NCBI GenBank assembly: GCA_017550145.1
Contig: JAFZQG010000040.1
Coordinates: forward strand, 1 to 64,000
Origin: Erysipelotrichaceae bacterium
GTDB lineage: Bacteria > Bacillota_I > Bacilli_A > Erysipelotrichales > Erysipelotrichaceae
DNA length: 64,000 bases
Direction of reading: 5' to 3'
The translations under genes were made by a program, and so were the position numbers. Of this stretch, positions 33,624 through 64,000 are shown one piece after another. The stretch's first letter is position 1; each line of letters starts with the position of its first letter. The notes below the pieces were generated by a model that did not search any database, was not told where the DNA came from, and saw only the letters and a program-made list of their open reading frames with translations.

Positions 33624-33661
33624 CAAAAAAAATAGACATAGTTCAACTTTGAACTATGTCT
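33624..33661 (-). terminator. Intrinsic terminator of the TIR gene
   Basis: Perfect 13-bp stem AGACATAGTTCAA (33634-33646 with 33649-33661) and an eight-U run on the minus strand. It overlaps the TAA stop. Confidence 0.88.
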
Positions 33662-41912: not shown

Positions 41913-41938
41913 ATAAAAAGCAGGAATGATTCCTGCTT
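41913..41938 (-). terminator. Terminator at the end of the liv operon
   Basis: 9-bp stem AAGCAGGAA/TTCCTGCTT (41918-41926 with 41930-41938) and a T-rich tail on the minus strand; it closes the transcript after the CBS-ACT gene. Confidence 0.8.
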
Positions 41939-42587
41939 AATACTGTTCGTGAAGTCTGATGACGCTTGTGACGTTATATCCGGCTGACGTAAGTGTATCT
42001 TTAATGTTGTCATAACCGTGAACGATGACGACGATTTCGATACCTCTGCTGGTCCTATAGACCGCCAGATTGGAGATCGAGATTCCGCTTTCCTTGAAGA
42101 TCCTGGCCACATCCTCGAGAATACCAGGTTTGTCTTCGGAGATGTTGATAACATATCTGGTCGCATTCTGGTTGTAGCCAAACAGTTCGATGAAAGCCGA
42201 GAAGATATCGTTATGAGTGATGATACCGATCAGCTTTCCGTCTTCTTCGACGACCGGCAGACAGCCGATATTGTTTTTGCGCAAGATCGTTGCTGCTTCT
42301 TCCAGAAGTGCTTCCTGATCGATCGTTACGACTTCATTGATCATGATGTCTTTGATCGTCAGTTTATTGAGCAGATAGTTCAGCTCGAATACGGATAATG
42401 ATGAAGAATTATTAGGTGTATTGAAGGCAATGAGACTTTCCGTAATCAGACCGATCAGTTTGCCTTCTTCATCCACCACAGGAAGTCTGTGCAATTTGTT
42501 TTCCGACATGATGTCGATTGCTTCAGAAACGGATTGATTCGGCCCAATCGTTATCGGACTGGGAACCATATGATCTTTTACGTACAT
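41937..42587 (-). CDS. CBS-CBS-ACT domain protein (AcuB-like)
   Basis: A 216-residue protein with two CBS domains (about 1-125; LYVKDHMVPSPIT at the start, NEVVTIDQEALLEEA in the second) and a C-terminal ACT domain (about 137-210). CBS domains bind adenosine nucleotides and ACT domains bind amino acids, so it may sense both. It is the last gene of the liv operon with an AGGAGG site after livF; an amino-acid-linked regulatory role is inferred. Similar CBS-ACT (AcuB-like) genes occur in other Firmicutes. Confidence 0.85.
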   Translation of the reverse strand: MYVKDHMVPSPITIGPNQSVSEAIDIMSENKLHRLPVVDEEGKLIGLITESLIAFNTPNNSSSLSVFELNYLLNKLTIKDIMINEVVTIDQEALLEEAATILRKNNIGCLPVVEEDGKLIGIITHNDIFSAFIELFGYNQNATRYVINISEDKPGILEDVARIFKESGISISNLAVYRTSRGIEIVVIVHGYDNIKDTLTSAGYNVTSVIRLHEQY

Positions 42588-42589
42588 TT

Positions 42590-43300
42590 CTAACCTCCTA
42601 GGTAAGCCTTTTTGATATCTTCGCTGTTGAGAAGTTCTTGACCGCTTCCCGACATCACAATTTTACCTGTTTCGATTACGTAAGCACGGTTGGCAATACC
42701 TAATGCCATCTTTGCATTCTGTTCGACCAGCAGTATTGTCACACCCTGACTGTTTATATCTTTAATTATATCGAATATTTCTCTGACAAGTAATGGTGAA
42801 AGGCCCATACTAGGTTCATCCAGCAGCATGATTTTCGGTTTGGCCATCAGGGCTCTGCCCATCGCCAGCATCTGCTGCTCACCACCGGAGAGTGTTCCGG
42901 CGAGCTGTTCCTTTCTTTCTAGCAATCTAGGGAATAGTTCGTAGACATTATCAAGATCTTTCTTGATACCGTCATTGTCTTTTCTTGTATAGGCTCCTAA
43001 TAATAGATTATCTTCAACGGACTGTGAAGCAAAGACTCTTCTTCTTTCCGGACACTGGGCAACACCCATTTCCACGATCTTGTGCGGAGGAACCTTGGTG
43101 ATATCCTTGTCATCCAGAATAATGGAACCGGAATACGCCTTAAGCAAACCGGATATCGTATGCATAGTCGTTGTCTTGCCGGCGCCGTTGGCACCGATCA
43201 GAGTTACGATCTCACCGTCATCAACTTCAAAACTGATGCCTTTGATGGCCTCGATCACACCGTAACGGACAACCAGATCATTTACTTTCAGCATAATCAA
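42590..43300 (-). CDS. livF: Branched-chain amino-acid ABC importer ATPase LivF
   Basis: A 236-residue ABC ATPase. Walker A GANGAGKTT near 36, signature LSGGEQQ near 137, Walker B IMLLDEPS near 156, H-loop. It powers the LivHM channel with LivG. It overlaps livG by 4 nt as ATGA. Confidence 0.95.
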   Translation of the reverse strand: MIMLKVNDLVVRYGVIEAIKGISFEVDDGEIVTLIGANGAGKTTTMHTISGLLKAYSGSIILDDKDITKVPPHKIVEMGVAQCPERRRVFASQSVEDNLLLGAYTRKDNDGIKKDLDNVYELFPRLLERKEQLAGTLSGGEQQMLAMGRALMAKPKIMLLDEPSMGLSPLLVREIFDIIKDINSQGVTILLVEQNAKMALGIANRAYVIETGKIVMSGSGQELLNSEDIKKAYLGG

Positions 43301-44061
43301 TCACCCAGATAAGCCTTGATGACTTTTTCATCCTTCTTGATCTCATCAGGGCTTCCTTTCGCCAATAAAGTACCGTAGTTCAAAACGTAGATTCTTTCGC
43401 AGATATTCATGACCAAAGACATGTCATGTTCGATCAGCAGGATGCAGATACCGAATTTGTCTCTGACGAATCTGATCGTCTTCATCAGTTCTTCGGTTTC
43501 CTGCGGGTTCATACCGGCAGCCGGTTCATCCAGCAAGAGAACCTTAGGATTAGTAGCTAAGGCTCTGGCTATCTCAAGGCGTCTTTGTGCACCATAAGGT
43601 AAAGAGCTTGCCGGAATATCTTTTGAATCATAAAGATTGAAGATCTTAAGCAGCTCTTCAGCTTTTTCTTCAATCAGCTGTTCGTTTTTCTTACGCTTAG
43701 AAGTATGAAGAATCATATCTAAAATCGAATACTCATAAAGATTATTCATACCTGTCTTAACATTATCGATAACGCTCAGATTACCGAATAATCTGATGTT
43801 CTGGAAAGTACGGGCTACACCGGCCTTATTTACTTCGACTGTATTCATCTTGGCAATATCGTTACCATCAAGATAAATAACGCCTCTTGAAGGATTATAG
43901 ACCTTCGTAAGCATATTGAAAACCGTTGTCTTGCCGGCACCGTTAGGACCGATCAGACCTACTATTTCGTGTTCGTTTACTTCCAGATTGAGATTGTTGA
44001 CAGCCGTCAGACCGCCGAAATCGATACCCAGATTTTTTACTTCAAGAACAGGATTGCTCAT
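43297..44061 (-). CDS. livG: Branched-chain amino-acid ABC importer ATPase LivG
   Basis: A 254-residue ABC ATPase with Walker A GPNGAGKTT near 38 and signature YGAQRRLEIARAL (LivG-type, lacking the canonical LSGGQ), Walker B VLLLDEPAAG. The first ATG of livG overlaps the livM stop by 4 nt. Confidence 0.95.
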   Translation of the reverse strand: MSNPVLEVKNLGIDFGGLTAVNNLNLEVNEHEIVGLIGPNGAGKTTVFNMLTKVYNPSRGVIYLDGNDIAKMNTVEVNKAGVARTFQNIRLFGNLSVIDNVKTGMNNLYEYSILDMILHTSKRKKNEQLIEEKAEELLKIFNLYDSKDIPASSLPYGAQRRLEIARALATNPKVLLLDEPAAGMNPQETEELMKTIRFVRDKFGICILLIEHDMSLVMNICERIYVLNYGTLLAKGSPDEIKKDEKVIKAYLGD

Positions 44062-45116
44062 TGTGCCTCTCCTTTCTTAAAGAAACGTTTGGTGGTTTTC
44101 TCTAATGTCTGCTTCAATGTAGCACTGTTGGTGATCTGCATAACCACGATTAATACTATTGCATACATCAGCATTCTGTAGTCCTGTAATGATCTTAACA
44201 GTTCAGGCAGGATATAAAGAACAGTGGTTGCAATGATCGTACCGTTGATATTGCCTAAACCGCCGAATACGACATAAACCAGGATCAGAATCGAGGTATT
44301 GAAATCGAATTTTGCCGGTTGTAAAGTCGAATAGTTAAGCGCATATAAAGCACCGGCCATTCCGGCTAAAACAGACGAAATGACAAATGCCAAAGTTTTT
44401 GTTTTGGAGATATCGACGCCGATCGATTCGGCAGCGATACGGTTATCTCTGGCTGCCATAATGGCACGGCCATATTTAGAATTAATCAATGAATAAATAA
44501 CATACAGCGTAAACAGAATGAGCACAAAACCGCTGGTGAAATTGGAGATCTTGGCAGTATCCGTAGCACCCATCGGTCCTGACAGCAGCATCTTGCCGCC
44601 TTCAAGTTTTAACTCATTTGTAACAAAGGAGAACTGCATACCTCTTGAATCAAAGCCCAGATAAACATTATTGATCAAAGACTTGATGATCTGACCGAAA
44701 GCCAAAGTAACAATAGCCAGGTAGTCTCCGGAAAGTTTCAAAACCGGAACGGAAATGATGAATCCGAAAATGCCTGATACGATACTTCCGCATAAGACAG
44801 ACAGAGCCAGTCTTAAGATATCATTCGGAATACTCTGGGCACAGAAACCTGATACGCAGACCGCGGTAAAAGCACCGATAGCCATAAAACCGGCATGGCC
44901 AAGCGATAGTTCGCCGGAAATACCGACAACCAGGTTAAGAGACAGACCTAAAATGATATAGCAGCATACCGGAACCAACAGAGACTTGAAAAGTCTGCTC
45001 ATGCCAACGGTATTCATGATTACTTCGATAAGAATATAGGCAACGATCACCATCAGGAAGCTGATGGTACGACTGCGGTTTTTCTTTGAGAAAAGATTAT
45101 TGAAAATGTTTTTCAT
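44058..45116 (-). CDS. livM: Branched-chain amino-acid ABC importer permease LivM
   Basis: A 352-residue permease with about ten hydrophobic segments, a long basic N-terminus and the conserved loop AARDNRIAAESIGVDI near 245. It pairs with LivH. livH and livM are separated by one base. Confidence 0.93.
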   Translation of the reverse strand: MKNIFNNLFSKKNRSRTISFLMVIVAYILIEVIMNTVGMSRLFKSLLVPVCCYIILGLSLNLVVGISGELSLGHAGFMAIGAFTAVCVSGFCAQSIPNDILRLALSVLCGSIVSGIFGFIISVPVLKLSGDYLAIVTLAFGQIIKSLINNVYLGFDSRGMQFSFVTNELKLEGGKMLLSGPMGATDTAKISNFTSGFVLILFTLYVIYSLINSKYGRAIMAARDNRIAAESIGVDISKTKTLAFVISSVLAGMAGALYALNYSTLQPAKFDFNTSILILVYVVFGGLGNINGTIIATTVLYILPELLRSLQDYRMLMYAIVLIVVMQITNSATLKQTLEKTTKRFFKKGEAQ

Positions 45117-45117
45117 A

Positions 45118-45999
45118 CTACACCTTCACATTCTCTTTCTTGCCGAGCAAACCGGTCGGTTTGATCAATAAAACAACGATCAGAACGGTAAAGACGATCG
45201 CATCGGAAAGCTGGGTAGAGATATATGCCTTGGTCAGGTTCTCAATGATACCCAACAGCAAGCCGCCTAATAAAGCTCCAGGAATCGAACCGATACCGCC
45301 GAAAACGGCAGCGGTAAAGGCTTTGATACCAGGCATGGAACCTAAGGTCGGGGAAAGTGACGGATAGGTCGAACAAAGCAAAATCGCTGCAATTGCAGCC
45401 AATCCCGAACCTATCGCAAAAGTGATGGAAATAGTCGTATTGATGTTGATTCCCATCAGCTGAGCAGCACCTTTATCTTCAGCACATGCCCGCATCGCTT
45501 TACCGATCTTTGTTTTATTAATGAATGAAGTTAAACCGGCCATGATTACGATACAGGTTACGATCGTAATAATAGTTAAGTAAGAAATAGTTAACTGACC
45601 GTCAAATAACTTTAATGACCCGTCTGTAAGAATCGTCGGGAAGATCTTGGTATCGGAACCGAACATCAGCTGGGCGGCGTTCTCCAAGAAATAGCTGACA
45701 CCGATGGCTGTAATTAAAACAGACAGTGAACTCGCCTGTCTTAAAGGTTTGTATGCCAGTCTTTCGATGACAACGCCCAGGATCGTCGAGAACAGAATTG
45801 AGAGAATAATGCATAATCCGCCAGGCAATCCGAAACGCGAGAACGCATAAAAAGCAACATAGCCTCCGGCCATGATGATATCTCCGTGTGCGAAATTAAG
45901 CATCTTGGCAATGCCGTAAACCATCGTATATCCTAAAGCGATGATCGCATAGACACTGCCTAATGCCAGACCTGAAATAAGATAAGTCAGAAAAGTCAT
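45118..45999 (-). CDS. livH: Branched-chain amino-acid ABC importer permease LivH
   Basis: A 293-residue permease with the HYIISGLALGSVYAI-type first helix and the loop MRACAEDKGAAQLMGIN. A frame opens at 46059, but that part is not LivH-like. The Met at 45999 begins M-T-F-L-T-Y and the hydrophobic family N-terminus. Only a weak ACAGG site precedes it. A 12-bp hairpin between livJ and livH lies just upstream. Confidence 0.9.
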   Translation of the reverse strand: MTFLTYLISGLALGSVYAIIALGYTMVYGIAKMLNFAHGDIIMAGGYVAFYAFSRFGLPGGLCIILSILFSTILGVVIERLAYKPLRQASSLSVLITAIGVSYFLENAAQLMFGSDTKIFPTILTDGSLKLFDGQLTISYLTIITIVTCIVIMAGLTSFINKTKIGKAMRACAEDKGAAQLMGININTTISITFAIGSGLAAIAAILLCSTYPSLSPTLGSMPGIKAFTAAVFGGIGSIPGALLGGLLLGIIENLTKAYISTQLSDAIVFTVLIVVLLIKPTGLLGKKENVKV

Positions 46000-46029
46000 A
46001 TAGTACCTGTCAACATAAATATTATAGAT

Positions 46030-46057
46030 GAAGGTTGCTGAAAAATCAGCAACCTTC
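46030..46057 (-). repeat. Perfect hairpin between livJ and livH
   Basis: 12-bp stem GAAGGTTGCTGA / TCAGCAACCTTC with an AAAA loop, no U-run. It may protect or process the livJ 3' end rather than terminate. Confidence 0.75.
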
Positions 46058-46072
46058 AATTATCGGAATTTC

Positions 46073-47254
46073 TTAGTTTGCAGAAACATAGACACCGTTG
46101 GTAATAACAACAGCCTTCGGAGCCTTGGAAACTTCACCATTTTCAGCCCAAGTCATATTAAGACCTGTGACACCGTCAAATGACATAGAAGTGAATTCGG
46201 CAGTCAGAGCTTCGCATAAACCGTTTGTTGCATAACCCTCTTTATAACCGATATTCTCTAAAGCCTGCTTGATAGCGTATACTACGTCGTAAGCATCAGC
46301 TGCGAACTGGTTAGGAGTCTCACCGTATTTATCCTGGTATGCTTTAACGAAATGAACAGTAGCTTCATCAGTAGCATCAGCAGCGAACGGTGTAAGCAGA
46401 TAGACACCCTCTGCTAATGAAGTATCGAAACCTTCAAGAGTCAGGATACCATCCATACCATCGACACCGAAGAATACTGGAGCATAACCCATATCGTTAG
46501 CCTGCTTTAAGATTGTTGAAGCTGGCTGATAGTAAATCGGTAAGAAAACCAGATCAGCGCCTGCATCTTTAGCAGCAGTCAGCTGAGTAGAGAAGTCTGT
46601 TGAAGAATCATCTGTGAATGCGCCTTCGTAAACAACGTTTACACCCTTGGCAGCTGCTTCAGCTTTGAATTTCTCAAAGACGCCTGCAGAATATACGTCG
46701 TCTGACTTGTAGATAACGGCAACAACCTTGTCAGCAAAGTTGGTAGCCATGTAGTCAGCAGAAGCTACACCCTGGTTAGGATCTGTGAAGCACATCTGGA
46801 AGTTACCAGGATAGTTCTTCGCATCAGTGTAAACAAGAGCTGTAGAAGAGCCTGAAGGTGTGATCGCAAAGATCTTGTCTTCATCATAGTAAGAAGCTAC
46901 TGCAGCACCTGAGCCTGAAGTAACAGTAAACATTGAAACCTGCATACCCCAGTCAAACAGTGTTGAATAAGCAGAAACAGCTTTTTCACCATCAGCTTCA
47001 TCATCTTCCATTCTGAATTCGAATTTGATCTTGGAATCTGAAGCATTGATTTCATCTACAGCGATCTGAGCCGCATTTCTTACTGCCTCACCATAAACTT
47101 TGGCATCACCGCTCAACGGACCGGAACCGCCAAGTTTTACTGTAACGGTACCGTCACCGGTTTCACCGCCACCCTCGTTGCCGCCTTTACTGCCGCATCC
47201 TGCAAGAGTCAGAACACAGAGTACGCTCAGCAATACAACTAATAATTTTTTCAT
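46073..47254 (-). CDS. livJ: Branched-chain amino-acid-binding lipoprotein LivJ
   Basis: A 393-residue periplasmic-binding-type protein. Lipobox L-A-G-C (C20 in this frame), a Gly/Glu linker, then the Leu/Ile/Val-binding fold: KLGGSGPLSGDAKVYGE near 45 and FGVDGMDGI near 250. Binds Leu/Ile/Val outside the membrane. A frame opens at 47260, but AAGGAAGGA directs to the ATG at 47254 (spacing 6). Its expression is subject to the leader at 47315-47507. Confidence 0.93.
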   Translation of the reverse strand: MKKLLVVLLSVLCVLTLAGCGSKGGNEGGGETGDGTVTVKLGGSGPLSGDAKVYGEAVRNAAQIAVDEINASDSKIKFEFRMEDDEADGEKAVSAYSTLFDWGMQVSMFTVTSGSGAAVASYYDEDKIFAITPSGSSTALVYTDAKNYPGNFQMCFTDPNQGVASADYMATNFADKVVAVIYKSDDVYSAGVFEKFKAEAAAKGVNVVYEGAFTDDSSTDFSTQLTAAKDAGADLVFLPIYYQPASTILKQANDMGYAPVFFGVDGMDGILTLEGFDTSLAEGVYLLTPFAADATDEATVHFVKAYQDKYGETPNQFAADAYDVVYAIKQALENIGYKEGYATNGLCEALTAEFTSMSFDGVTGLNMTWAENGEVSKAPKAVVITNGVYVSAN

Positions 47255-47314
47255 AAACATTCCTTCCTTTCAGTAAGTAGTTTTTTTATAGATACAGTCT
47301 GAGCTGTTTCTAAC

Positions 47315-53814: not shown

Positions 53815-54165
53815 ATGAACATTAAAAACTTCAATTTCCGGATCTTTATCACCAACCTGATCGTTGATCTTTTATATCCAATTCTGAAGGCTGTCAGCAG
53901 TAAAAACTCGCTTTTGGCTTTTTCCGATGCCTGCTTTATTATTGCGATGATCATGGCCTTGATCGGTATCGCTTATGCCCTTTATCTGCATGGTGATTTT
54001 GATATTACGGGTTATATCGCGAGCCGTTCTTTAAATAAAGAGAAAAAGGATTTTGATGTCTATATGAAAGATCAGAAAATAAAAAGAAAGGACAGTTTCA
54101 ACTATCCTTTGCTTTGTGCGATAATTCTTTTTCTTTTATCCTATCTTTCCGCTTTATTTGTTTAA
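53815..54165 (+). CDS. DUF3899-type membrane protein
   Basis: A 116-residue protein with two or three hydrophobic segments and the pattern [16 protein letters not shown] then a charged cytoplasmic loop [18 protein letters not shown], then a C-terminal helix, as in DUF3899 proteins. Function unknown. The start has no ribosome site and is 6 nt after TATAAT. Its 3' end overlaps the convergent oppF by 12 nt. Confidence 0.65.
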
Positions 54166-55122
54166 AGCTTCAGCTCTTTCCATTTCCTGGAGTTTAGCTT
54201 CGTACTCTTTCATTTCACGGTCATTGGCGAAAACCAGATGGTTTTCTCTGATCGGCTGCAGAATAGGCTTTTCACCTGAGTGATCTCTCTTAGACTCGTC
54301 GTATACGACGTGTTTTTTAGGTTTTTCGATCTGTGGGTCAGGCATCGGTACAGCACTTAACAGTGAAATAGTATACGGATGCAGAGGATGTTTGAACAGT
54401 TCTTCGGTTTCCGCAATCTCAACGATTCTTCCTAAATGGATAACCGCGATTCTATCTGATATGAATCTGACAACCGAAAGATCATGGGCAATAAACAGAT
54501 AGGTTAAGCCCTTTTCATCTTTCAGCTTGTTCATGAGGTTAAGAACCTGGGCACGGATGGAAACATCCAGTGCGGAAATCGGTTCATCCGCAACGATCAG
54601 TTCCGGTTCCATGATCATGGCTCTGGCGATACCGACACGCTGTCTTTGTCCACCGGAGAATTCATGAGGATAACGGGACTTATGTTCAGGAAGCAGACCG
54701 ACATCTTCAAGCGCTCTGTCAACCTTGGCAATACGGTCTTCCTCGTCTTTATAAAGATGGAAGTTGTATAAACCTTCGGATACACAGTATTCGATATTGG
54801 CTCTTTCGTTAAGCGAAGCAGCCGGATCCTGGAAGATCATCTGAATGGATCTGATGACTTCCTTATCATCTTCTTTGGAGATCTTGCCGGAAATCTTCTT
54901 TCCTTTAAAGTAAATCTCTCCTTTTGAAAGTTCATTGATTCTCATGATGGCACGGCCGATCGTGGTCTTGCCGGAACCTGATTCACCAACCAGGGCGAAA
55001 GTCTCTCCGCGGTAGATATCGAAATTCGCATTTTTAACCGCTCTGAAAGGCTTTTTGCCGCCCTTATCGAAAGATACATCTACGCCTCTTACGGAAAGCA
55101 GAACTTCTTTATTGTTCGACAT
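54154..55122 (-). CDS. oppF: Oligopeptide ABC importer ATPase OppF
   Basis: A 322-residue ABC ATPase with an OppF-type C-terminal oligopeptide-binding extension. Walker [10 protein letters not shown] near 47, signature SGGQRQR near 160, Walker [17 protein letters not shown] start at 55131 is possible but AGGGAGG 8 nt before the ATG at 55122 fixes the start. Confidence 0.93.
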
Positions 55123-56182
55123 AGTATGCACCTCCCTTACTGGTCATGGCTGAGATCTTTTCATGCAGATTCCTGATAGCCTCAGGTTTTTCGACCTTCG
55201 GAGCACGCGGATCCAGCAGCCAGGTCTTGGCATAATGAGTATCACTGATCTTGAAGAAAGGCGGTTCCTCTTCGAAATCGATCTTCAAGGCATATTTGTT
55301 TCTTGGTGCGAACGCATCACCCTTAATGACATTGTAGAGTGAAGGTGGCGTACCGGTAATATAGTTGAGTTCCTGTCCCTTGACACCTAACTGCGGTAAG
55401 GAAGACAGCAATGCCCAGGTATATGGATGAGCCGGTTCGTAGAAGATCTCTTCAACAGTACCGATCTCAATGATCTGACCGCCGTACATGACGCCTACTC
55501 TATCTGCAACATTGGCAACAACACCAAGGTCGTGAGTAATGTAAACAGTCGTGAACTTGAGTTCTTTCTGCAGGTCTTTGATCAGGTCGATGATCTGGGC
55601 CTGGATCGTAACATCCAGAGCAGTCGTAGGTTCATCACAGATCAAGATTTCCGGACGGCAGGATAAAGCGATCGCGATAACGATTCTCTGTCTCATACCA
55701 CCGGAATACTGGAATGGATATTCATCGAAACGCTTAGCCGCATCAATGATACCGACACGGTCCATAATATCGACAGCCTGTTTCTTGGCTTCTTCAGCCG
55801 AAACTTTCTGGTGTTTGATGATTACTTCGGTAATCTGGGAACCGATCGTTCTGATCGGGTTAAGTGAAGTCATCGGGTCCTGGAAGATCGTCGCGATCTT
55901 GGCACCTCTGATGCCTTCCCAGTCCTTGTCACTCTCTAATTTTGTCAGATCCTTGCCATCATACATGACGGAACCGTTGGTGACTTTACCGTTTGATTCC
56001 AGCATGCCGGTAAAGGTCTTGGTGAAGACTGATTTACCTGAACCTGATTCGCCGACGATAGCGAAAGTTTCACCATCATAAAGATCCAGTGAAACGCCTC
56101 TGATGGCATTGAGATAGTTATCTCTGACACGGAATTTAACTTCAATATCTTTAGCAGATAAAATTATTTTCTTTTCTTCCAT
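55109..56182 (-). CDS. oppD: Oligopeptide ABC importer ATPase OppD
   Basis: A 357-residue ABC ATPase with Walker [10 protein letters not shown] near 46, signature SGGMRQR near 164 and the [12 protein letters not shown] Walker B. The OppD C-terminal cysteine-bearing oligopeptide-binding region is reduced. It overlaps oppF; AGGAGG precedes the ATG. Confidence 0.93.
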
Positions 56183-56193
56183 AACTTTACCTC

Positions 56194-57117
56194 CTATCTG
56201 TGTGTTCTTGGATCAGATGCATCAGCTAATGCCTGACCGACAAGATACAGGGAAATACTTATAACAGCCAGTAATGATACCGGAATCCAGAACAGATGCG
56301 GATAGGCATTCATATATGATGTATAAGATGAGATCATACGTCCTAAAGAAGCATTCTGCTGGCCTAAACCTAAGCCGAGATATGAAAGGAAAACCTCATA
56401 TGAGATATTTACCGGGATCTCTCTTGAGACATAGGTCATAATAACGGAAATCAGATACGGCAGGATATTCTTCGTAATGATCGTCCAGGTCGGAGTACCT
56501 AAGCACTTGCTGGCAAGGTTATACTCACGGTCACGGATGATCATGACCTGCGTTCTGATGAAATATGCGACATAGATCCAGTTGGTAACACACATGATGA
56601 AGATCAGAGATTTGAATCCTGAACCCAGAACATATGAGAGGATCATCGCCAGCAGCAGGAACGGTACGTTGGAGACGACGTTATATACTTCGATCATCCA
56701 GACGTCGACTTTCTTGGAGAAGCCCCAGATCGCACCGACAATGATACCGAGGACCATATTGATGATCGTACAACCAAAACCAATGATCAGTGAGTTCTTA
56801 GCACCGGCCCAAACTGCATCAAACAGGTCGCGGCCGATATTATCCGTACCGAAGATATGTTCGGAAGAAGGACTCTGGAACTTGGAACTAGGATCGTTGA
56901 TGTTTGGCGCATACATCGGATCGTAGTGTGAGAAAAGCGGCTGAATCATCGCAAAAGCAACGACGACCAGCATCATTATGCATACAGCTACGATGAACTT
57001 GTTGCTGACGAAAGTACGCCAGACGGATTTCCAGTATGAATAACGGGGAGCGGCAATGTGTTCAGATTTGGTTTCATCGAATTCCGCAAAAGTAAATAGA
57101 TCGTTCTTTTCGCTCAT
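56194..57117 (-). CDS. oppC: Oligopeptide ABC importer permease OppC
   Basis: A 307-residue permease: a cytoplasmic N-terminus, about six hydrophobic helices, and the BPD_transp_1 loop ASKCLGTPTWTIITKNILP near 210. GGAGG overlaps its start region. Confidence 0.93.
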   Translation of the reverse strand: MSEKNDLFTFAEFDETKSEHIAAPRYSYWKSVWRTFVSNKFIVAVCIMMLVVVAFAMIQPLFSHYDPMYAPNINDPSSKFQSPSSEHIFGTDNIGRDLFDAVWAGAKNSLIIGFGCTIINMVLGIIVGAIWGFSKKVDVWMIEVYNVVSNVPFLLLAMILSYVLGSGFKSLIFIMCVTNWIYVAYFIRTQVMIIRDREYNLASKCLGTPTWTIITKNILPYLISVIMTYVSREIPVNISYEVFLSYLGLGLGQQNASLGRMISSYTSYMNAYPHLFWIPVSLLAVISISLYLVGQALADASDPRTHR

Positions 57118-57119
57118 CT

Positions 57120-58619
57120 TTATCTGCCCTCCTCCTTATTAGCCAATGAAATACGTGGGTCGATCCAGGTGATGATGATATCACCGAGGAAGACACCGAT
57201 AATCGAAATCGTTGTATACAGGAATGCCAGAGCAATGATCATGGCATTGTTATACGAGTTGATCGCATCCGGAAGCATCTTACCCATACCACCGACAGAA
57301 TATACAGATTCCGTGATGATCGCACCGGTGATACAGCCCGCCAGTGAAGACGGAATACCCTGGGCGATTGGAATGATGGCATTACGGAAGATGTGCTTCT
57401 TATAGATCTCCGACTGATTCAGGCCTTTGGCTTTTGCAAATTTAACATAGTCGGAATTCATCTGGTCGACCATATACCTTCTTGTCCAAAGCATCAAAGA
57501 AGCGATGGAAGGAAGTGCCAGTGAAACACACGGCAATACCCATGAACGGATATCGCTGACGCCATATGTCGGGAATGCGGTCGGCAGATGGAAGAATGTT
57601 GAGCCTAAGTATTTAAAGAAATAGATATAAGCCAATGATGGAACGGAAATGATAAAGATGATATAAAGCATACCAAGTTTATCAGCCAGTCCGCTCTTTG
57701 ATCTGGCCATCAGCAAGCCAACCGGAAGACCTATACCATATGCCAGAACCAAAGCAATGATACCCATGATAAAGGAAATACCCATCATGGAAGGATCTTT
57801 CTTGATCGTTGTACAGTTTGCGTAATTATCCTGGAATTTATTCTTATCCAGTTTATCCAGAGAATTCTTCCATTTGCAGGCTGTCATTTTATAAGAACTT
57901 GTCTCGACATGACCATCCTCAAAAACGGTATCAACTCTCTTTTCCTGACCCTGTGAGTCGGAAATGACGTTCAGAACCTGTAATGAATCAAAAGTCGGAT
58001 AAGACTGACCTAAATACAGAGATATCCAGTTCTGATGAATGAACGGGAATGATGTATCGGTATAGGCGAGATATTTATATTCGCATCCCGAACATTTGAT
58101 AGCTAAACCACCGGTCGGAGTCTTTCCGAAATAGATTTTCCTCTCGACATCCGGGAACATTTCCTCATCAACATAGTTTGGTGAGTCAATATGAATGAGC
58201 TGAATAAACCATTCAACGATTCTCTTAGCGATCGGTCTGTCTTTAGAAGCGATCGGCGATTTGGAAAGCGGGAGGTATGTTATGTCATAGCCTAAAGATT
58301 CGTATTTTTCAACGAAGTCCTTTTCTTCTTTTGCCCCACTCAGATTGCAGGCAGCAATCTCATCAGTTCCTGCTTCATATAAAGTAGAACAGTAAGAAGA
58401 CATATTCTCGTAATCAATATATCCTAACCTCTGCCAAGTGCGCATCTGATACTGCAGCTTTTCATCTGGTTTACCACCCAGTTTAACCAAAGTATCGTCA
58501 CTGTTGAAGATTCTTTCTCGTGGCACAAGTGAGTATACCAATACAAAAACGATTGAAATTACAAGCAATATAGAAATGACGGATCTTACTATTCGTTTCC
58601 AATAATATCCTCTTTCCAT
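57120..58619 (-). CDS. oppB: Oligopeptide ABC importer permease OppB with a large exterior insertion
   Basis: A 499-residue permease, much longer than the usual 310-330. After one N-terminal transmembrane helix there is about 250 residues of hydrophilic sequence with paired cysteines (C169-x-x-C172-like and C-K-W-K near 250), then the normal five-helix core with the loop FAKAKGLNQSEIYKKHIFRNA. The insertion is extracellular and may contact the binding protein. The ribosome site AAAGGAGG is strong. Confidence 0.9.
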   Translation of the reverse strand: MERGYYWKRIVRSVISILLVISIVFVLVYSLVPRERIFNSDDTLVKLGGKPDEKLQYQMRTWQRLGYIDYENMSSYCSTLYEAGTDEIAACNLSGAKEEKDFVEKYESLGYDITYLPLSKSPIASKDRPIAKRIVEWFIQLIHIDSPNYVDEEMFPDVERKIYFGKTPTGGLAIKCSGCEYKYLAYTDTSFPFIHQNWISLYLGQSYPTFDSLQVLNVISDSQGQEKRVDTVFEDGHVETSSYKMTACKWKNSLDKLDKNKFQDNYANCTTIKKDPSMMGISFIMGIIALVLAYGIGLPVGLLMARSKSGLADKLGMLYIIFIISVPSLAYIYFFKYLGSTFFHLPTAFPTYGVSDIRSWVLPCVSLALPSIASLMLWTRRYMVDQMNSDYVKFAKAKGLNQSEIYKKHIFRNAIIPIAQGIPSSLAGCITGAIITESVYSVGGMGKMLPDAINSYNNAMIIALAFLYTTISIIGVFLGDIIITWIDPRISLANKEEGR

Positions 58620-58635
58620 TTTCTACCTCCTTTCG

Positions 58636-58669
58636 AAAAAATAAGGAGAGTAGATAGGACTACTCTCCT
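58636..58669 (-). terminator. Attenuating terminator between oppA and oppB
   Basis: A 10-bp stem (58644-58653 with 58660-58669) and a U6 tract on the minus strand, just before the oppB ribosome site. It should give more OppA than transporter. Confidence 0.75.
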
Positions 58670-58698
58670 ATTGGTTTTTTTATATACTTTGTGAAGAA

Positions 58699-60696
58699 TT
58701 ATTCACCCTTCATCCAAGCAGCCTTAGCAGCTTCATGTTCTGCAGTAGTCTGGATCTTCTCGTTGTAAACCTTCATACCCTTGAAGATAGGAACGTTGTT
58801 GTAAGAAGCCCAACCGTAGTTACCATGACATGCGGTGTAAGGAACGATCTTGGAAATGTTGACGCCTGCACCTGAAGTGCTGACTGGTCTTACAAGAGCC
58901 TTAGTCAGGAAGTAAGCTTCTGCTTCTGCGTACTTAGTGAAACGCTCGTCATTGTTGTCAACGATAGCATCAGCTTCTTTACACATAGCATCAAATTCGC
59001 TTAAGCCGACTAATTCCTTGATTCTTTCGTTTTCTTCATCAGAAATAGCGATCTTATCGATACCTAAGTTCTGGAGCATATCACCGTTATCCGGTAAGAA
59101 GATGTTCAGATAGGTTCTAGGGTCTTCGTAGTCAGGGCCCCATCCGCCGTAGAACAGTAAGTCACAGTTTGTCTGATAACCTTCATCTGCATAGTACCAG
59201 CAGTCGTAGTATGTATCAACATCAACCAGGTTGATATCGATAACGACATTTTCAGCACCTAATGCTTCTTCGATGGCAGCTTTTTCAGCCAGGTTTCTGT
59301 TAACCCAAGTCTCGGAAGTTTCAACAGCTAATGTGTCGAGGTGAATCGGCCAAGTAACTGTATCGCCTAATTCTTCTTTAGCAGCAGCTAAGTAAGCAGC
59401 AGCCTTTTCAGGATTGTACCAAGCATCCTGACCATCAGCTAAGTTAACATCTTCGTAACCTTCATAAGTGTGTAACTTTTCAGTTAATACGTCGATGTAG
59501 TTAGCGCCATTGATCTTACAGAAAGTAGGAGCAACGATTGTGTTTCTGATCGGTCCATCAGCCAGTTCTTCACCTAATGTAACTGCTTCATAAGCATGAG
59601 AAGAGAATGCAGACATGACAGCCTTACGGAAGTTGAGGTTCAGTAAAGCAGTTCTGGTATCAGCCTTCTGTTCTTCAGTCTTGACTGAAACAGCCTTTGA
59701 AGGATCTGAGAATGAGCTGTACTGTCTTCTGTTAACGTTCAGAGCAGCCCAGTAGCAGGTAGTACCTGTATCGGAAATGAACATATTTTCGCCGTAGTTA
59801 GCTTCAGCATCAGCCTTGATTTCAGGGTTAGCAACTCTGACACCAGTAGCATCAACTTCACCGTTCTTGAACATCTTGTACAGATAGTCAGGGTCGTCGT
59901 TTTCAGCTGTATAAGTTAACTTAACGTTCTTGATGAATACATTTTCAGCATCCCAGTAATTGTCGTTCTTTGTGAATTCGATTACGGATTTAGAAGTGTA
60001 GTTGGAAATTACGTATGCAGAGTTGTAGAGAATACCATCAGCAGCAAGAGCACCGAAAGTACAAGCCTCAGCATTTGGAGCACCTAACTTACAACCATCA
60101 CCCTTAGACTCTAAGAATTCAGCGTTGACCGGGAATAAGATTGAATAAGTGGTCATAGATGGGAAGTAAGGAGTAGGACCTGTCATCTTGTAGACTACAG
60201 TGTAGTCATCAGGTGTAGAGATACCTACCTGATCCCAGGTAATTGTACCGGCAATGTAATCGTTTAAGCCTTCGATTACGTCACCGACTAACCATAATGT
60301 TAATGACTGGAATTCGGCCGCATGTCTTAAACCGGTTACGAAGTCTTCAGCCTTAACTTCATCATAGACTTCACCATTGTTGGTTACCCACTGAGCACCC
60401 TTGCGAAGGTGGAAAGTCCATTCAGTAGCGTCTTCGTTCTGATCCCAAGATTCAGCCATACCTGGAGCCAGGTTGCCGTATTTGTCCTGAGTTAACAGAC
60501 CTTCTACGCCATTGTTGTAGATGTCGCCATTAGTGGATCTGTTGTTGTAGATGTAGTCGAATGTTGATAAGTCAGCAGTATAAACATAGTTGAAAGTATC
60601 TTTATACTCGCTAGTTTCATTGTTACCACCATTACCGCCATTAGTACAACCAACCAGCACTAATAAAGCCATCAATAATGCTAATAATTTTTTCAT
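58699..60696 (-). CDS. oppA: Oligopeptide-binding lipoprotein OppA
   Basis: A 665-residue SBP_bac_5-type protein. Signal M-K-K-L-L-A with lipobox V-L-V-G-C (C17), a Gly/Asn-rich linker, and the peptide-binding fold of two lobes (DLSTFDYIYNN near 46, EWTFHLRKGAQWVTNNG near 90). The frame opens at 60780, but the start is 60696: AAGGAAG upstream. It binds peptides for the OppBCDF importer. Highest-expressed member by position. Confidence 0.92.
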   Translation of the reverse strand: MKKLLALLMALLVLVGCTNGGNGGNNETSEYKDTFNYVYTADLSTFDYIYNNRSTNGDIYNNGVEGLLTQDKYGNLAPGMAESWDQNEDATEWTFHLRKGAQWVTNNGEVYDEVKAEDFVTGLRHAAEFQSLTLWLVGDVIEGLNDYIAGTITWDQVGISTPDDYTVVYKMTGPTPYFPSMTTYSILFPVNAEFLESKGDGCKLGAPNAEACTFGALAADGILYNSAYVISNYTSKSVIEFTKNDNYWDAENVFIKNVKLTYTAENDDPDYLYKMFKNGEVDATGVRVANPEIKADAEANYGENMFISDTGTTCYWAALNVNRRQYSSFSDPSKAVSVKTEEQKADTRTALLNLNFRKAVMSAFSSHAYEAVTLGEELADGPIRNTIVAPTFCKINGANYIDVLTEKLHTYEGYEDVNLADGQDAWYNPEKAAAYLAAAKEELGDTVTWPIHLDTLAVETSETWVNRNLAEKAAIEEALGAENVVIDINLVDVDTYYDCWYYADEGYQTNCDLLFYGGWGPDYEDPRTYLNIFLPDNGDMLQNLGIDKIAISDEENERIKELVGLSEFDAMCKEADAIVDNNDERFTKYAEAEAYFLTKALVRPVSTSGAGVNISKIVPYTACHGNYGWASYNNVPIFKGMKVYNEKIQTTAEHEAAKAAWMKGE

Positions 60697-60739
60697 TTTT
60701 CTTCCTTTCTTATATATGTGTATAAAATGACACATTACA

Positions 60740-60768
60740 ATTTTACACGAGTATATAAAGCGTTTCAA
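60740..60768 (-). promoter_or_regulatory. Promoter of the opp operon
   Basis: TTGAAA (60763-60768), 17-nt spacer and TAAAAT (60740-60745) on the minus strand, giving a leader of about 40 nt. Confidence 0.7.
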
Positions 60769-60780
60769 TAAAAGATTCAC

Positions 60781-60857: not shown

Positions 60858-60883
60858 TTAAAAGCTGTCTTTTTAGACAGCTT
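60858..60883 (-). terminator. Terminator of the URO-D/cysteine-desulfidase operon
   Basis: 9-bp stem AAGCTGTCT/AGACAGCTT (60862-60870 with 60875-60883), UUUU loop and a short U4 tail on the minus strand. Confidence 0.7.
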
Positions 60884-61865
60884 GGAGTTCATCTGCGGTT
60901 TCTTTAATGTATCTTAATGTTTCAGGATCGAGCGGATACCTGATTACACAACCCGGTGCCAGGATATGTTTTATGCCTCCAAAAGTCTTGAGACATTCGC
61001 TGATCTGGAAGCGGATCTTGTCATAATTGCGATCCGTTATATCTCTTCTGTCCAGGCCGCCCATGATACACTTACCAGTCTGCTTAGCCTCTTCCAGTGT
61101 CGGCAGAGATTCCCAGGCATGCCAGTTGAAGATATCAACCGGATAGTCTTTCAGGATATCAAACATGATGTTTGTTCCGTGGCAGTGGATCGTATCACAG
61201 AAACCTTCACTGGCTTCCAGGACCTGACGGTCATAGTATTCACCGAATTCTTTAAATGTTTTTTCATCCGTCACATCATAGCTGCTCATCTGTGAAGCGA
61301 AGAAGACGCCATCCGCACCCATAGATATTGCCGTTCTAACTAATTCAGCTGTCAGATCGGCAATGATCTGCAAGGCATTATGGATCTTCTTGGTATCCGT
61401 ATTGCGAATATCCTCTAATAAGCGGTTATTGGACAGTTTATTAGCTGTCGTAAACGGTGAGAATACTGTAAACAATACCGGTACATCTTCATCTTTGACC
61501 TTTTCCAGTAAAAGTTTCAGAGAATACAGTTCTCGCTGAATGGCTTTGCATTCTTCGAGTTTCAAAGGTTTGATCAGATCCCAGTCATCCGGAGTAGAAA
61601 TCGGAGTGCTGATCAGTTTGGCTACACCACCGGTCTTGATCTGCGAATAATCGACCTCGCAGCCGAAATCCTCGATCGCATACATACCGTTATTCATCGT
61701 CTTGATCAGATCGGTATCGTAAGTCTTATAAAAGTTGTATGTTTCTTCTGCCAGTCTTACCGGATCCATATCAATACCCGGAAGATGAGTCCAGATCGCA
61801 TATGGAAGCTTATCGGTCTTATCACCTCTTACTGCTGCGTAGATTCTTTCTTTTTTGCTTGTCAT
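60873..61865 (-). CDS. URO-D superfamily protein (MtaA-like), 2
   Basis: A 330-residue protein of the uroporphyrinogen decarboxylase/corrinoid methyltransferase superfamily. Against MtbA-type zinc sites (His-x-Cys...Cys) this protein has IHCHG near 230 (His-Cys-His) and APGC near 305, so one ligand differs. True UroD is unlikely because the N-terminal uroporphyrin motif is missing. It may transfer or remove methyl groups. It starts one base before the cysteine-desulfidase stop; the first paralogue is at the window edge. Confidence 0.75.
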   Translation of the reverse strand: MTSKKERIYAAVRGDKTDKLPYAIWTHLPGIDMDPVRLAEETYNFYKTYDTDLIKTMNNGMYAIEDFGCEVDYSQIKTGGVAKLISTPISTPDDWDLIKPLKLEECKAIQRELYSLKLLLEKVKDEDVPVLFTVFSPFTTANKLSNNRLLEDIRNTDTKKIHNALQIIADLTAELVRTAISMGADGVFFASQMSSYDVTDEKTFKEFGEYYDRQVLEASEGFCDTIHCHGTNIMFDILKDYPVDIFNWHAWESLPTLEEAKQTGKCIMGGLDRRDITDRNYDKIRFQISECLKTFGGIKHILAPGCVIRYPLDPETLRYIKETADELQAV

Positions 61866-63140
61866 TTAATCCTCCAGCATGATATTCAGTATTTCCACAT
61901 CGGTACTCTTCATACCTTCAGCAGCCATTCTGCCATAAGCCTTAATGGTTTTTTCGATGTCGTTCTTTACCATGCCTTCTCCATAACGGAAGACATTTTC
62001 ATTCTTGGCCATCTGAACGCTTAATAAAGCAGCTTCGACAGCTAAAGAGATCTTTCCGGCACAGCTGGACTTGGCACCATCGCAGACCATCCCGCCGATA
62101 GTGGCGATCGTATTGGTTATAACCATGCAGATCTGTTCATATGACATGCCCATAAGATATGCCACACCGCATCCTGCACCGGCCGCTGCACTGGCAGCTC
62201 CGCAATAGGCACTCAGATAACCGATATAACGTTTCTGGTGTAAAGCAACCAGATTTGCCAATACCAGGGCTCTGATCAGTTCCTCTCTGGAACTGCCCAG
62301 TTCTTTGGCATATTCGATTACCGGTAAGGAAACAGTCATACCCTGATTGCCACTTCCGGAATTGATCACGACCGCCATCGGACAGCCGTTCATTCTGGCA
62401 TCGGAACCGGCTGCCGCTGCAGCTCTGGCTCTTAAGCGGATATCGGATGAATTGGTATATTCCTTCATGTTTCTGCCGACCTGTTCGCCCCAGGCATTTT
62501 TTAAACCTTCAACTGAAATGGCAGTATTATCTCTGATCTGTCTTTCGATTACTGCTTCGACATCTTTTAAATCAACGTTAAGCGCATAATCATAGATATC
62601 TCTGACATTCATCAATGATTTATCCGGACCCGGATATTCATCATCATTGCACTTCTTCTCCAAGATAACTTCACCGTTTCTGATGATCCTCGTGAAATTG
62701 GAATGAGTCTGCTGTATCTCTACCAGTACATTGTTTTCAGCTTTGGATGCTTCGATCCTGATATAGAGCGTCGGAACATTCTGGGCCAGATGACAGACAA
62801 ACAGAACTCTTTCTTTTTCTTTCTTCAGCAGTTCACGGTCTTCATCATTTACTTTGCTGATGACCTGCAGGTTGGCATTTGGATCGCCGCCTACCATGCC
62901 TAATAAAACTGCCGTATCGATTCCTTTGACACCGCCGGAATTAGGCACAACTACGCCTTTGACATTCTTGATGATGTTACCAGAACAGTAGACATCAACA
63001 ACATCAGGCATTTCTCCGAGCACTTCTCTGGCCTTGGCACCAGCCAAAGCCAAAGCGATCGGCTCCGTACAGCCTGTCGCTTCAACAAGTTCGGTCTCCA
63101 GTATTTCCTTATAGGTGTTCATCACTTCAGAGTTCAGCAT
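61866..63140 (-). CDS. L-cysteine desulfidase-family protein
   Basis: A 424-residue UPF0597/CyuA-type protein. Family members use an Fe-S cluster to degrade cysteine to pyruvate, ammonia and sulfide. Seen: GCTEPIALALA near 23, the SGSGNQGMTVSLPV segment near 255, and CGAASAAAGAGCG and CDGAKSSC near 310 and 350 holding the cluster-type cysteines. It overlaps the upstream URO-D-like gene by 14 nt and has GAGGG at 8 nt. Confidence 0.88.
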   Translation of the reverse strand: MLNSEVMNTYKEILETELVEATGCTEPIALALAGAKAREVLGEMPDVVDVYCSGNIIKNVKGVVVPNSGGVKGIDTAVLLGMVGGDPNANLQVISKVNDEDRELLKKEKERVLFVCHLAQNVPTLYIRIEASKAENNVLVEIQQTHSNFTRIIRNGEVILEKKCNDDEYPGPDKSLMNVRDIYDYALNVDLKDVEAVIERQIRDNTAISVEGLKNAWGEQVGRNMKEYTNSSDIRLRARAAAAAGSDARMNGCPMAVVINSGSGNQGMTVSLPVIEYAKELGSSREELIRALVLANLVALHQKRYIGYLSAYCGAASAAAGAGCGVAYLMGMSYEQICMVITNTIATIGGMVCDGAKSSCAGKISLAVEAALLSVQMAKNENVFRYGEGMVKNDIEKTIKAYGRMAAEGMKSTDVEILNIMLED

Positions 63141-64000
63141 TGATTATTCCCTCCTCCATGACAACTTCGTTCATTAAGGTGAAGACGTAGCGGTCCACAT
63201 CCATCGGCAAGGCACAGCCCGGCGCAAAGACGACACGCTTATCCTGGCTCTCATTGATGACAGTCAAAAGTCTCTTGCGGAAGAACTCCTTGAGTTCATC
63301 ACGGTTATTGTTTTCGTTATAGTAGTCATAGTGTCTGGCTAAACCGGTGATCAGGATCTTATCGGTCATGGCACGTACTTCAGCTACGGAAGAGATCGTA
63401 TCGGATTCCAAGCCCGGTACACAGTTCTCCCAGCTGAAAGCCTGCACATCATAGTCCAGACATTTATCGAACATCAGATTATTCTCGCCATGGACATGCA
63501 AGACATTGAACCAGGTCTTGTCTTTGATATATGAGAGTATCTCTTTGTCGTACGGTGTACAGAATTCATCATACAGTTCATCGGTTATGACATTTCTCGA
63601 TGCATACTGATTCGCAAAGAAAATACCATCGATATGCGCTTCATCCATCAGCATATCCAGATAATTCTTGGTGCTTTCAACTATTTTACGTAAAGCCTCA
63701 TGAACTTCGGCTTTATGTTCCTTCATTAACGGCAGAGTCTTGTCGTTGGTCCCTCTGCTCATCAGTTCCTGTAAAGTCGTCATCGGTGTAAAGATCGTTG
63801 AAATAACCGGTTTTTCGTCCCTGTAGTGTTCGACCAAGTTTTTGGCTATAGCCGTTTCCCTGATGAAAACAGGATTGTCCTTACCTAATACTTCAAGATT
63901 ATTCAAAGTCTCCAGATCCCTTACAGGATATCTGTTGATCACGCCATACCACTTGGTGAGATCCTTGGACAGAGTGATATCTCCGCCCCAGGCCTCAGGA
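63127..64000 (-). CDS. URO-D superfamily protein (MtaA-like), 1, partial
   Basis: The first of two paralogues. The open frame continues upstream without a stop to the window end (P-E-A-W-G-G-D is in frame near 63985), so the start lies beyond 64000; a GTG at 63942 is internal. Within the visible part are LHVHG near 130 residues from the visible GTG and APGCALP near the C-terminus, the same H-x-H...C ligand set as the downstream copy. Substrate unknown. The start of the desulfidase overlaps its 3' end. Confidence 0.72.
   Translation of the reverse strand, partial: PEAWGGDITLSKDLTKWYGVINRYPVRDLETLNNLEVLGKDNPVFIRETAIAKNLVEHYRDEKPVISTIFTPMTTLQELMSRGTNDKTLPLMKEHKAEVHEALRKIVESTKNYLDMLMDEAHIDGIFFANQYASRNVITDELYDEFCTPYDKEILSYIKDKTWFNVLHVHGENNLMFDKCLDYDVQAFSWENCVPGLESDTISSVAEVRAMTDKILITGLARHYDYYNENNNRDELKEFFRKRLLTVINESQDKRVVFAPGCALPMDVDRYVFTLMNEVVMEEGIINAEL

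What the first reader, a model, noticed from the sequence alone, without database searches (positions are those of the whole stretch)
60873..64000. Operon of two URO-D-like proteins flanking a cysteine desulfidase
The tight overlap (14 nt and one base) shows co-transcription. Both URO-D-like proteins keep H-x-H and APGC instead of H-x-C...C as in MtaA/MtbA. A pathway that demethylates a sulfur compound and then removes sulfide is a possible reading, yet no corrinoid protein is in view.
Basis: inference. Interest (0 to 1): 0.55.

Follow-up and report, generated by a model that had tools for sequence, protein, structure and literature searches.

The report
Corrinoid-free URO-D enzymes releasing cysteine
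This gut-bacterial gene set appears to import a modified form of the amino acid cysteine, free the cysteine with an unstudied metal enzyme of the uroporphyrinogen-decarboxylase fold, and break it into hydrogen sulfide and pyruvate; no paper found here assigns the enzyme a function.

Summary
In detail: two URO-D-like proteins with H-x-H-G and APGC flank a CyuA-type cysteine desulfidase. Upstream, outside the window, lie an ATC_hydrolase-family gene, a binding protein and LivHMGF, behind a two-component system; relatives in Erysipelotrichaceae keep this order. The corrinoid reading is not supported: no B12-binding domain was found in this genome or in nine of 23 other genomes carrying the family. 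The family's metal triad is His-His-Cys, not MtaA's His-Cys-Cys.

Three contexts point to cysteine as product. Of 80 family loci, 26 of 38 in Firmicutes (without Lactobacillales) and Synergistota have CyuA nearby; 9 of 14 in Proteobacteria have an unrelated PLP cysteine desulfhydrase (Cds1-like) instead; none has both. In two of 11 Lactobacillales loci a transporter/URO-D operon sits behind a T-box reading the Cys codon UGC. The other 43 loci show no such link.

My reading: an S-substituted or cyclic cysteine is imported, the metal URO-D-like enzyme breaks its C–S bond without corrinoid, and CyuA turns the cysteine into H2S, pyruvate and ammonia. The cysteine link is well supported; substrate, metal and chemistry are inferred. 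New variant of a known kind.

The parts
60873..61865 (-). URO-D2: His-His-Cys URO-D-fold protein, 330 aa; proposed cysteine-releasing enzyme
   Evidence: PF01208 101.5 bits; H227, H229, C306 invariant in 58 of 58 rows; model pLDDT 96.4, best VIA match MtaA 4ay7 Z 34.7, rmsd 2.3, 317 aligned
61866..63140 (-). CyuA-type [4Fe-4S] L-cysteine desulfidase, 424 aa (C24, E26, C313, C353, C360)
   Evidence: PF03313 204.7 bits; aligns to solved CyuA 9he0 at 1.9e-14 with the catalytic Cys-x-Glu and the cluster cysteines matched (residue roles from passages of PMC12647591); no NCBIfam match
63127..64000 (-). URO-D1: second His-His-Cys URO-D-fold protein (continues to 64185, 352 aa in all); S-W-E where URO-D2 has N-W-H. 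The rest of the operon lies beyond the window; its coordinates are in the full report
   Evidence: PF01208 90.2 bits; model pLDDT 89.8; clade of its own with the Erysipelotrichaceae copies

Best explanation
The operon catabolises an imported cysteine derivative. The ABC transporter brings in an S-substituted or cyclic (thiazolidine/thiazoline-type) cysteine. The URO-D-like proteins, using a metal (probably zinc) held by His-x-His and the Cys of A-P-G-C, bind its sulfur and stabilise it as the thiolate leaving group while the S-C bond to the substituent is broken, by hydrolysis or elimination; L-cysteine is released and no corrinoid is needed. CyuA then splits cysteine to pyruvate, ammonia and H2S. 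URO-D1 and the ATC_hydrolase-family protein are taken to handle related or ring-closed forms of the substrate. Shown here: gene order and its conservation, metal-ligand pattern, no detectable corrinoid protein in ten genomes, swap of CyuA and Cds1-like lyases, Cys T-boxes. Inferred: co-transcription, the metal, the substrate, the bond broken, the order of steps, the role of URO-D1.
For: 1) Two non-homologous cysteine H2S-lyases replace one another beside the family (up to 10 kb each side; groups made by me from record titles): CyuA in 6 of 6 Erysipelotrichaceae and 20 of 32 other Firmicutes/Synergistota loci, Cds1-like in 9 of 14 Proteobacteria (one truncated, one partial), both in 0 of 80. 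Of 20 genomes chosen by me, 10 hold CyuA (1-4 copies); in 8 of those 10 a copy lies in the URO-D locus, 0.14 expected. Of 11 proteobacterial genomes, 10 hold Cds1-like genes at E <= 1e-100 (1-2 copies) and 7 of those 10 have a full copy in the URO-D locus; 0 of 14 control genomes have it. Cds1-like neighbours occur in two separate URO-D clades. 2) T-boxes before the ABC-transporter/URO-D operons of L051 and L071 carry UGC (Cys) in the specifier columns; in the same loci these columns read ACC before a ThrRS-like gene and AUG before a MetQ-like gene. 3) CyuA C24, E26, C313, C353 in 28 of 28 and C360 in 27 of 28 rows (L008 and L020 are one contig; one 82-bit fragment of L028 left out). 4) Metal ligands invariant in 58 of 58, lying where MtaA has H-x-C and C. 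5) No PF02310 in this genome or in 9 of 23 family-bearing genomes; no PF02607 in 10 of 10. 6) The transporter changes (Liv, Tct, AbgT, Dpp-type, SBP_bac_3) while URO-D stays (the Tct and Dpp names partly and from reading).
Against: 45 of 80 loci have no cysteine lyase in the DNA held: 12 of 32 Firmicutes/Synergistota outside Erysipelotrichaceae and Lactobacillales, 11 of 11 Lactobacillales, 5 of 14 Proteobacteria, 17 of 17 of the rest; some contigs simply end. Two proteobacterial genomes (L064, L093) hold Cds1-like genes away from URO-D. The Cds1-like proteins stay under the curated cut-off. T-boxes stand before URO-D operons in only 2 of 11 Lactobacillales loci; none was found in the window's own locus or in eight further non-Lactobacillales loci. 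His-His-Cys is a less thiophilic site than the His-Cys-Cys tied to sulfur substrates in PMC10418091. Fourteen of 23 family-bearing genomes do have B12-binding domains. No gene points to one substrate. The neighbour statistics treat related genomes as independent and the genomes were not drawn at random.
Confidence: 0.5

Rival explanations
1. Corrinoid-free alkyl or methyl transfer: like MetE or epoxyalkane:CoM transferase, the metal site activates a thiol and moves a methyl or alkyl group straight between cysteine and another acceptor, so that S-methylcysteine, for example, is demethylated onto a second thiol.
For: After MtaA and UROD the next structural relatives are MetE structures (Z 18-22); PMC10418091 lists MetE and epoxide CoM transferase in the superfamily (passages); two URO-D paralogues here could form a donor/acceptor pair.
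Against: No acceptor-handling gene was recognised among the recurrent neighbour clusters (not searched for as such); 72 of 80 loci show one URO-D gene in the DNA held.
Confidence: 0.18
2. Corrinoid-dependent demethylation as in MtaA/MtbA or type 1 mlp clusters.
For: MtaA is the best profile and fold match; mlp clusters are tied to sulfur metabolism (PMC10418091, abstract and passages); 14 of 23 family-bearing genomes have B12-binding domains somewhere.
Against: No PF02310 and no PF02607 in this genome, G110 and eight Lactobacillales genomes; His-His-Cys not His-Cys-Cys; scores far below the MtaA/CmuA cut-off (79.1 and 55.6 vs 235.4). The assembly is 94% complete, so a missed gene is possible.
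Confidence: 0.06
3. Thiazoline/thiazolidine route only: the substrates are ring-closed cysteine adducts (with cyanide, aldehydes or ketoacids); ATC_hydrolase, M24, C45 and octopine-dehydrogenase-like partners open or trim the ring, and the URO-D-like protein finishes it. A narrower form of the best explanation.
For: PF14196 heads the operon in this lineage; M24 (prolidase/ectoine-hydrolase-like), C45 and Octopine_DH proteins recur in other lineages.
Against: With a model built from the Erysipelotrichaceae proteins (not Pfam's), the ATC_hydrolase gene is seen in 5 of 80 loci, all Erysipelotrichaceae; some loci show only transporter, LysR, URO-D and CyuA among the families tracked (L033-L035); PF14196 members need not act on ATC.
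Confidence: 0.15
4. The URO-D-like protein does not make cysteine: it is a decarboxylase or a sulfide- or cysteine-consuming enzyme merely co-regulated with cysteine import and breakdown.
For: 45 of 80 loci have no cysteine lyase in the DNA held.
Against: Two loci without any lyase have transporter plus URO-D behind Cys T-boxes, which expects supply, not disposal.
Confidence: 0.11

Closest known systems
MtaA/MtbA methylcobamide:CoM methyltransferases (SCMT, 4ay7)
   Same: Fold over the whole length (Z 34.7), position of the metal ligands, APGC
   Different: His-x-His...Cys instead of His-x-Cys...Cys; 20% identity; no corrinoid protein found in this genome; family found also in Lactobacillales and Proteobacteria
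Type 1 mlp gene clusters (Kountz and Balskus, PMC10418091; abstract and passages seen)
   Same: Several MtaA-like proteins in one operon, sulfur-linked neighbours, common in Firmicutes
   Different: [quoted passage not shown] here no corrinoid protein was found and the site is His-His-Cys; neighbours are CyuA or Cds1-like lyases and amino-acid-type transporters
cyuPA of E. coli (PMC9040844; start of abstract in the listing)
   Same: Dedicated importer plus CyuA desulfidase for cysteine
   Different: Imports cysteine itself; no URO-D-like step named there
S-(2-succino)cysteine pathways, yxe/scm with YxeK or 2SL (PMC9706529, PMC12757645; passages)
   Same: Breakdown of an S-substituted cysteine with release of cysteine
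   Different: They act mainly on the N-acetylated substrate with a flavin monooxygenase or a lyase class I enzyme (cd01334); the word uroporphyrinogen occurs 0 times in either main text

Membership tests
URO-D superfamily (PF01208) | Pfam gathering score and URO-D fold | tested here: met
   101.5 and 90.2 bits vs 23.9; fold matches to MtaA and UROD for URO-D2; URO-D1 modelled but not fold-searched
MtaA/CmuA methyltransferases (TIGR01463) | Curated score cut-off | tested here: not met
   79.1 and 55.6 bits vs 235.4
MtaA/CmuA methyltransferases (TIGR01463) | His-x-Cys...Cys zinc ligands | tested here: not met
   His-x-His...Cys in 58 of 58 rows
MtaA/CmuA methyltransferases (TIGR01463) | Corrinoid partner protein in the genome | tested here: not met
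   no PF02310 or PF02607 match in the 94%-complete assembly; the missing 6% cannot be seen
Type 1 mlp gene cluster | Corrinoid protein in the cluster | tested here: not met
   none among the operon genes, none in the assembly
Type 1 mlp gene cluster | Ram/RACE activase | not tested
   no separate search; none among the operon genes scanned
HemE uroporphyrinogen decarboxylase (TIGR01464) | Curated score cut-off | tested here: not met
   26.4 and 23.3 bits vs 302.95
CyuA L-cysteine desulfidase | Cys-x-Glu active-site pair and three cluster cysteines | tested here: met
   C24, E26, C313, C353, C360 (roles from passages of PMC12647591)
CyuA L-cysteine desulfidase | Cysteine desulfidase activity | not testable with these tools
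   -
ATC hydrolase (PF14196) | Pfam gathering score | tested here: met
   67.5 vs 28.1 bits
ATC hydrolase (PF14196) | Hydrolysis of 2-aminothiazoline-4-carboxylate | not testable with these tools
   no solved relative by sequence: best PDB match E 0.19
Cds1 L-cysteine desulfhydrase (neighbours in Proteobacteria, NF052478) | Curated score cut-off of 600 bits | tested here: not met
   500.8-587.9 bits in 12 copies; best-scoring family for the two proteins scanned; hence called Cds1-like
S-(2-succino)cysteine lyase 2SL | Lyase class I family (cd01334) | not tested
   no cd01334 search; the URO-D-like proteins match PF01208, and the 2SL family is stated in a passage of PMC9706529

The most novel reading that the evidence does not exclude
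A widespread, corrinoid-free branch of the URO-D/MtaA fold with a His-His-Cys metal site is a class of C-S-cleaving enzymes that frees cysteine from S-substituted or thiazolidine-type cysteine, feeding H2S production in gut anaerobes and cysteine supply in Lactobacillales and Proteobacteria.
Probability: 0.38. Interest if true: 0.78.

Novelty: new variant of a known kind. Interest (0 to 1): 0.62.

Why it matters
The five plasmid records that hold the family call it 'uroporphyrinogen decarboxylase' or '... family protein'. If the reading is right these proteins are a hidden source of H2S and cysteine in gut and rumen bacteria, they add a reaction that needs neither methyl transfer nor corrinoid to the MtaA fold, and the two T-box-controlled operons offer a direct growth test.

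Tried and rejected
Corrinoid route: set aside. The downstream oligopeptide transporter (window 54154-60780) as part of the operon: set aside, because no DppB/DppC-type gene is found behind URO-D2 in L015 and L017-L020 (the L016 contig ends there) and because its DppB-type permease scores 107 bits against the model of linked copies, which score 321-482. Against this, its DppC-type permease scores 390, inside the range of linked copies (358-430), and its binding protein clusters with theirs; a promoter-like site lies before it, but such sites are fewer than in shuffles (22 vs 32.9). So its exclusion is likely, not proven. Known 2SC lyase: another family. One genome-contig scan with the CyuA protein found no relative; the second, with a URO-D alignment, gave the 80 loci used (best 80 of 235 kept). 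Genome samples searched by sequence at strict E-values: URO-D1 in 196 genomes of the order, found in this genome and G110; URO-D1 in 392 and URO-D2 in 344 of the phylum, found in this genome only. PDB search of the ATC_hydrolase protein gave only chance-level matches. Literature searches that held no paper: uroporphyrinogen decarboxylase-like, methyltransferase, thiol, zinc; uroporphyrinogen decarboxylase family, cysteine desulfidase; PF01208, methyltransferase, corrinoid; uroporphyrinogen decarboxylase, cysteine desulfhydrase, gene cluster. In the listings shown (3 of 3; 18 of 18; 10 of 58,865, useless; 15 of 40; 2 of 2; 12 of 33) I saw by title or start of abstract no paper on this family; the nearest is the mlp paper, on a different set. 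The library holds open-licence papers only. Metal-site distances were not measured; model coordinates were not at hand.
Full report
What is there. The window is bases 1-64,000 of an 83 kb contig; the operon runs on beyond it. Read in the direction of transcription: histidine kinase and AraC-type response regulator (8-nt overlap), 160 nt holding a terminator-like stem, ATC_hydrolase-family protein (PF14196), solute-binding protein (Peripla_BP_6), LivH, LivM, LivG, LivF, URO-D1, CyuA, URO-D2. In contig coordinates, which continue those of the window, all on the minus strand: LivF 64189-64893 (start at an internal Met chosen by me; the mechanical ORF starts at a GTG at 64983), LivG 64880-65662, LivM 65665-66654, LivH 66659-67540, binding protein 67616-68905, ATC_hydrolase protein 68920-69426, response regulator 69587-70621, histidine kinase 70614-72299 (the kinase named from reading its sequence, as its library hits are weak and partial). 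Gaps: 14 nt before the binding protein, 75 nt after it; from LivH to URO-D2 neighbours are at most 4 nt apart or overlap (the LivG/LivF overlap is 14 nt with the start I chose, not the 20 nt printed there). The terminator-like stem is weak evidence (13 found, 10.9 expected). A divergent MFS gene lies beyond the kinase. The genome has one CyuA match at E <= 1e-8 and two PF01208 matches, all in this operon. Rfam shows no match in L003.

Conservation. A genome-contig scan with a URO-D2 alignment gave 80 loci, the best of 235. Six are Erysipelotrichaceae records (L015-L020) and all six keep URO-D1, CyuA, URO-D2 and the binding protein; the ATC_hydrolase gene is in five, the sixth contig starting too late to show it. 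L020 and L008 (G110) are the same contig. URO-D1 was seen in no other locus of the 80 and forms one clade of 8 rows. The URO-D2 type spans Firmicutes, Synergistota (Pyramidobacter), Proteobacteria, Chloroflexi and others at 33-78% identity. In samples of 196, 392 and 344 genomes it is rare at strict E-values.

The metal site. Against MtaA (4ay7) the family profile aligns H-x-H-G with H-x-C-G and A-P-G-C with A-P-G-C. In 58 rows (the window's and 57 chosen of the 87) H227, H229 and C306 never vary, nor do W25, H27, D32, K55, T133, P137, T139, Q192 and H249. URO-D1 keeps the triad but has S-W-E in place of N-W-H, so its substrate probably differs. The URO-D2 model (pLDDT 96.4) matches MtaA best (Z 34.7, rmsd 2.3, 317 aligned), then UROD structures (Z 31.6-33.2), then MetE structures (Z 18-22). 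PMC10418091 (passages) states that His-Cys-Cys marks S-methyltransferases of the superfamily and that O-methyltransferases have a carboxylate or a non-ligand in place of one or both Cys; His-His-Cys is not among the sites named in those passages. That the metal is zinc is inferred.

No corrinoid. PF02310 has no match in this 94%-complete assembly, nor in G110, four Streptococcus, Desemzia, Ruoffia and two Aerococcus genomes, 9 of 23 family-bearing genomes tested; the other 14 have a match, 13 over the cut-off. PF02607 has none in 10 of 10, this genome included. Controls ring in 12 and 9 of 14 genomes. A reaction that needs a corrinoid protein can therefore hardly be general for the family.

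Cysteine link 1, desulfidases. Neighbours were found with models built from the clusters themselves; groups are mine, from the record titles. CyuA: 6 of 6 Erysipelotrichaceae, 20 of 32 other Firmicutes (without Lactobacillales) and Synergistota. Cds1-like PLP enzyme: 9 of 14 Proteobacteria (L069 truncated, L070 partial at a contig end). Both: 0 of 80. Neither: 45 of 80, namely 12 of those 32, 5 of 14 Proteobacteria, 11 of 11 Lactobacillales and 17 of 17 others. The Cds1-like proteins score 501-588 bits to NF052478, under its cut-off of 600; it is the best family for the two scanned. That M. tuberculosis Cds1 is a cysteine desulfhydrase rests on the NCBIfam name and on recall; of PMC8389258 I saw title and start of abstract. 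Expected number of CyuA genes in the URO-D loci of the ten CyuA-holding genomes tested is 0.14; observed 8 (genomes are related and chosen, so the formal probability printed there is too small). Of the ten genomes with Cds1-like genes at E <= 1e-100, 7 have a full copy in the URO-D locus, one a truncated copy there, and two (L064, L093) only elsewhere. The Cds1-linked URO-D proteins fall in two separate clades (midpoint-rooted FastTree, support not printed). Cypionkella (L073) and Gemmobacter fulvus carry a Rid protein beside the PLP enzyme (L073 by reading; Gemmobacter as annotated), as expected for a route through 2-aminoacrylate (RidA chemistry recalled).

Cysteine link 2, regulation. In Desemzia (L051) and an Atopococcus MAG (L071) the operon ATPase, binding protein, two permeases, URO-D lies behind a T-box. 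In the Rfam alignments the specifier columns (position in the model recalled) read UGC for both. The same columns read ACC for the T-box before a ThrRS-like gene in L051 and AUG for the one before a MetQ-like gene in L071; these two gene names come from reading the sequences, and they serve as the check on the columns. The other 9 of 11 Lactobacillales loci show no T-box at the gathering score, nor do the nine other loci scanned, L003 among them. The L051 binding protein's best NCBIfam match is the cystine SBP, far below its cut-off (74.2 vs 312).

Mechanism. CyuA's catalytic Cys-x-Glu and cluster cysteines are present, so cysteine to pyruvate, ammonia and H2S is the expected last step. Small sets seen are transporter, LysR, URO-D and CyuA (L033-L035) or transporter plus URO-D under a Cys T-box (L051, L071). 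Hence URO-D most likely makes cysteine from what the transporter brings. A metal-bound thiolate as leaving group is the chemistry that fits the fold; hydrolysis, elimination and transfer cannot be told apart here. M24, C45, Octopine_DH and PF14196 partners suggest peptide, acyl or ring-closed forms of the substrate; that is inference.

Limits. 43 of 80 loci show neither a cysteine lyase nor a Cys T-box (not all were scanned for one) and some may have another function. Some loci are cut by contig ends, so absences are upper bounds. Substrate and activity are untested.

Noticed in passing
window 54154-60780: Oligopeptide ABC transporter operon (OppA-like to ATPase) directly downstream of URO-D2, with a promoter-like site of its own (weak); not seen there in the relatives that can be read.
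   Followed up: partly
window 41937-47260: A second, separate Liv-type transporter set (binding protein, two permeases, two ATPases), followed by a CBS-domain-like gene (from reading the ORFs).
   Followed up: no
window 33661-35700: 679-aa protein beginning with a TIR-like domain, from reading the ORF list; possibly a defence or signalling gene.
   Followed up: no
L069 upstream of the URO-D gene, and PDB 9fou_B: Microvirga has annotated hydantoinase/oxoprolinase genes near its URO-D gene, and the epsilon subunit of acetophenone carboxylase matches the URO-D2 model (Z 20.6, 7% identity); a possible link between the two enzyme groups.
   Followed up: no
L054 11552-12574: Streptococcus orisratti has a second, divergent URO-D gene (243 bits) with its own binding protein behind the first set.
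   Followed up: no
L072, L090, L094: In these three loci the URO-D gene stands beside DUF1028-type genes (PF06267 confirmed for L072), two of the three with Dpp-type genes and two with M24 genes; a different function is possible.
   Followed up: no
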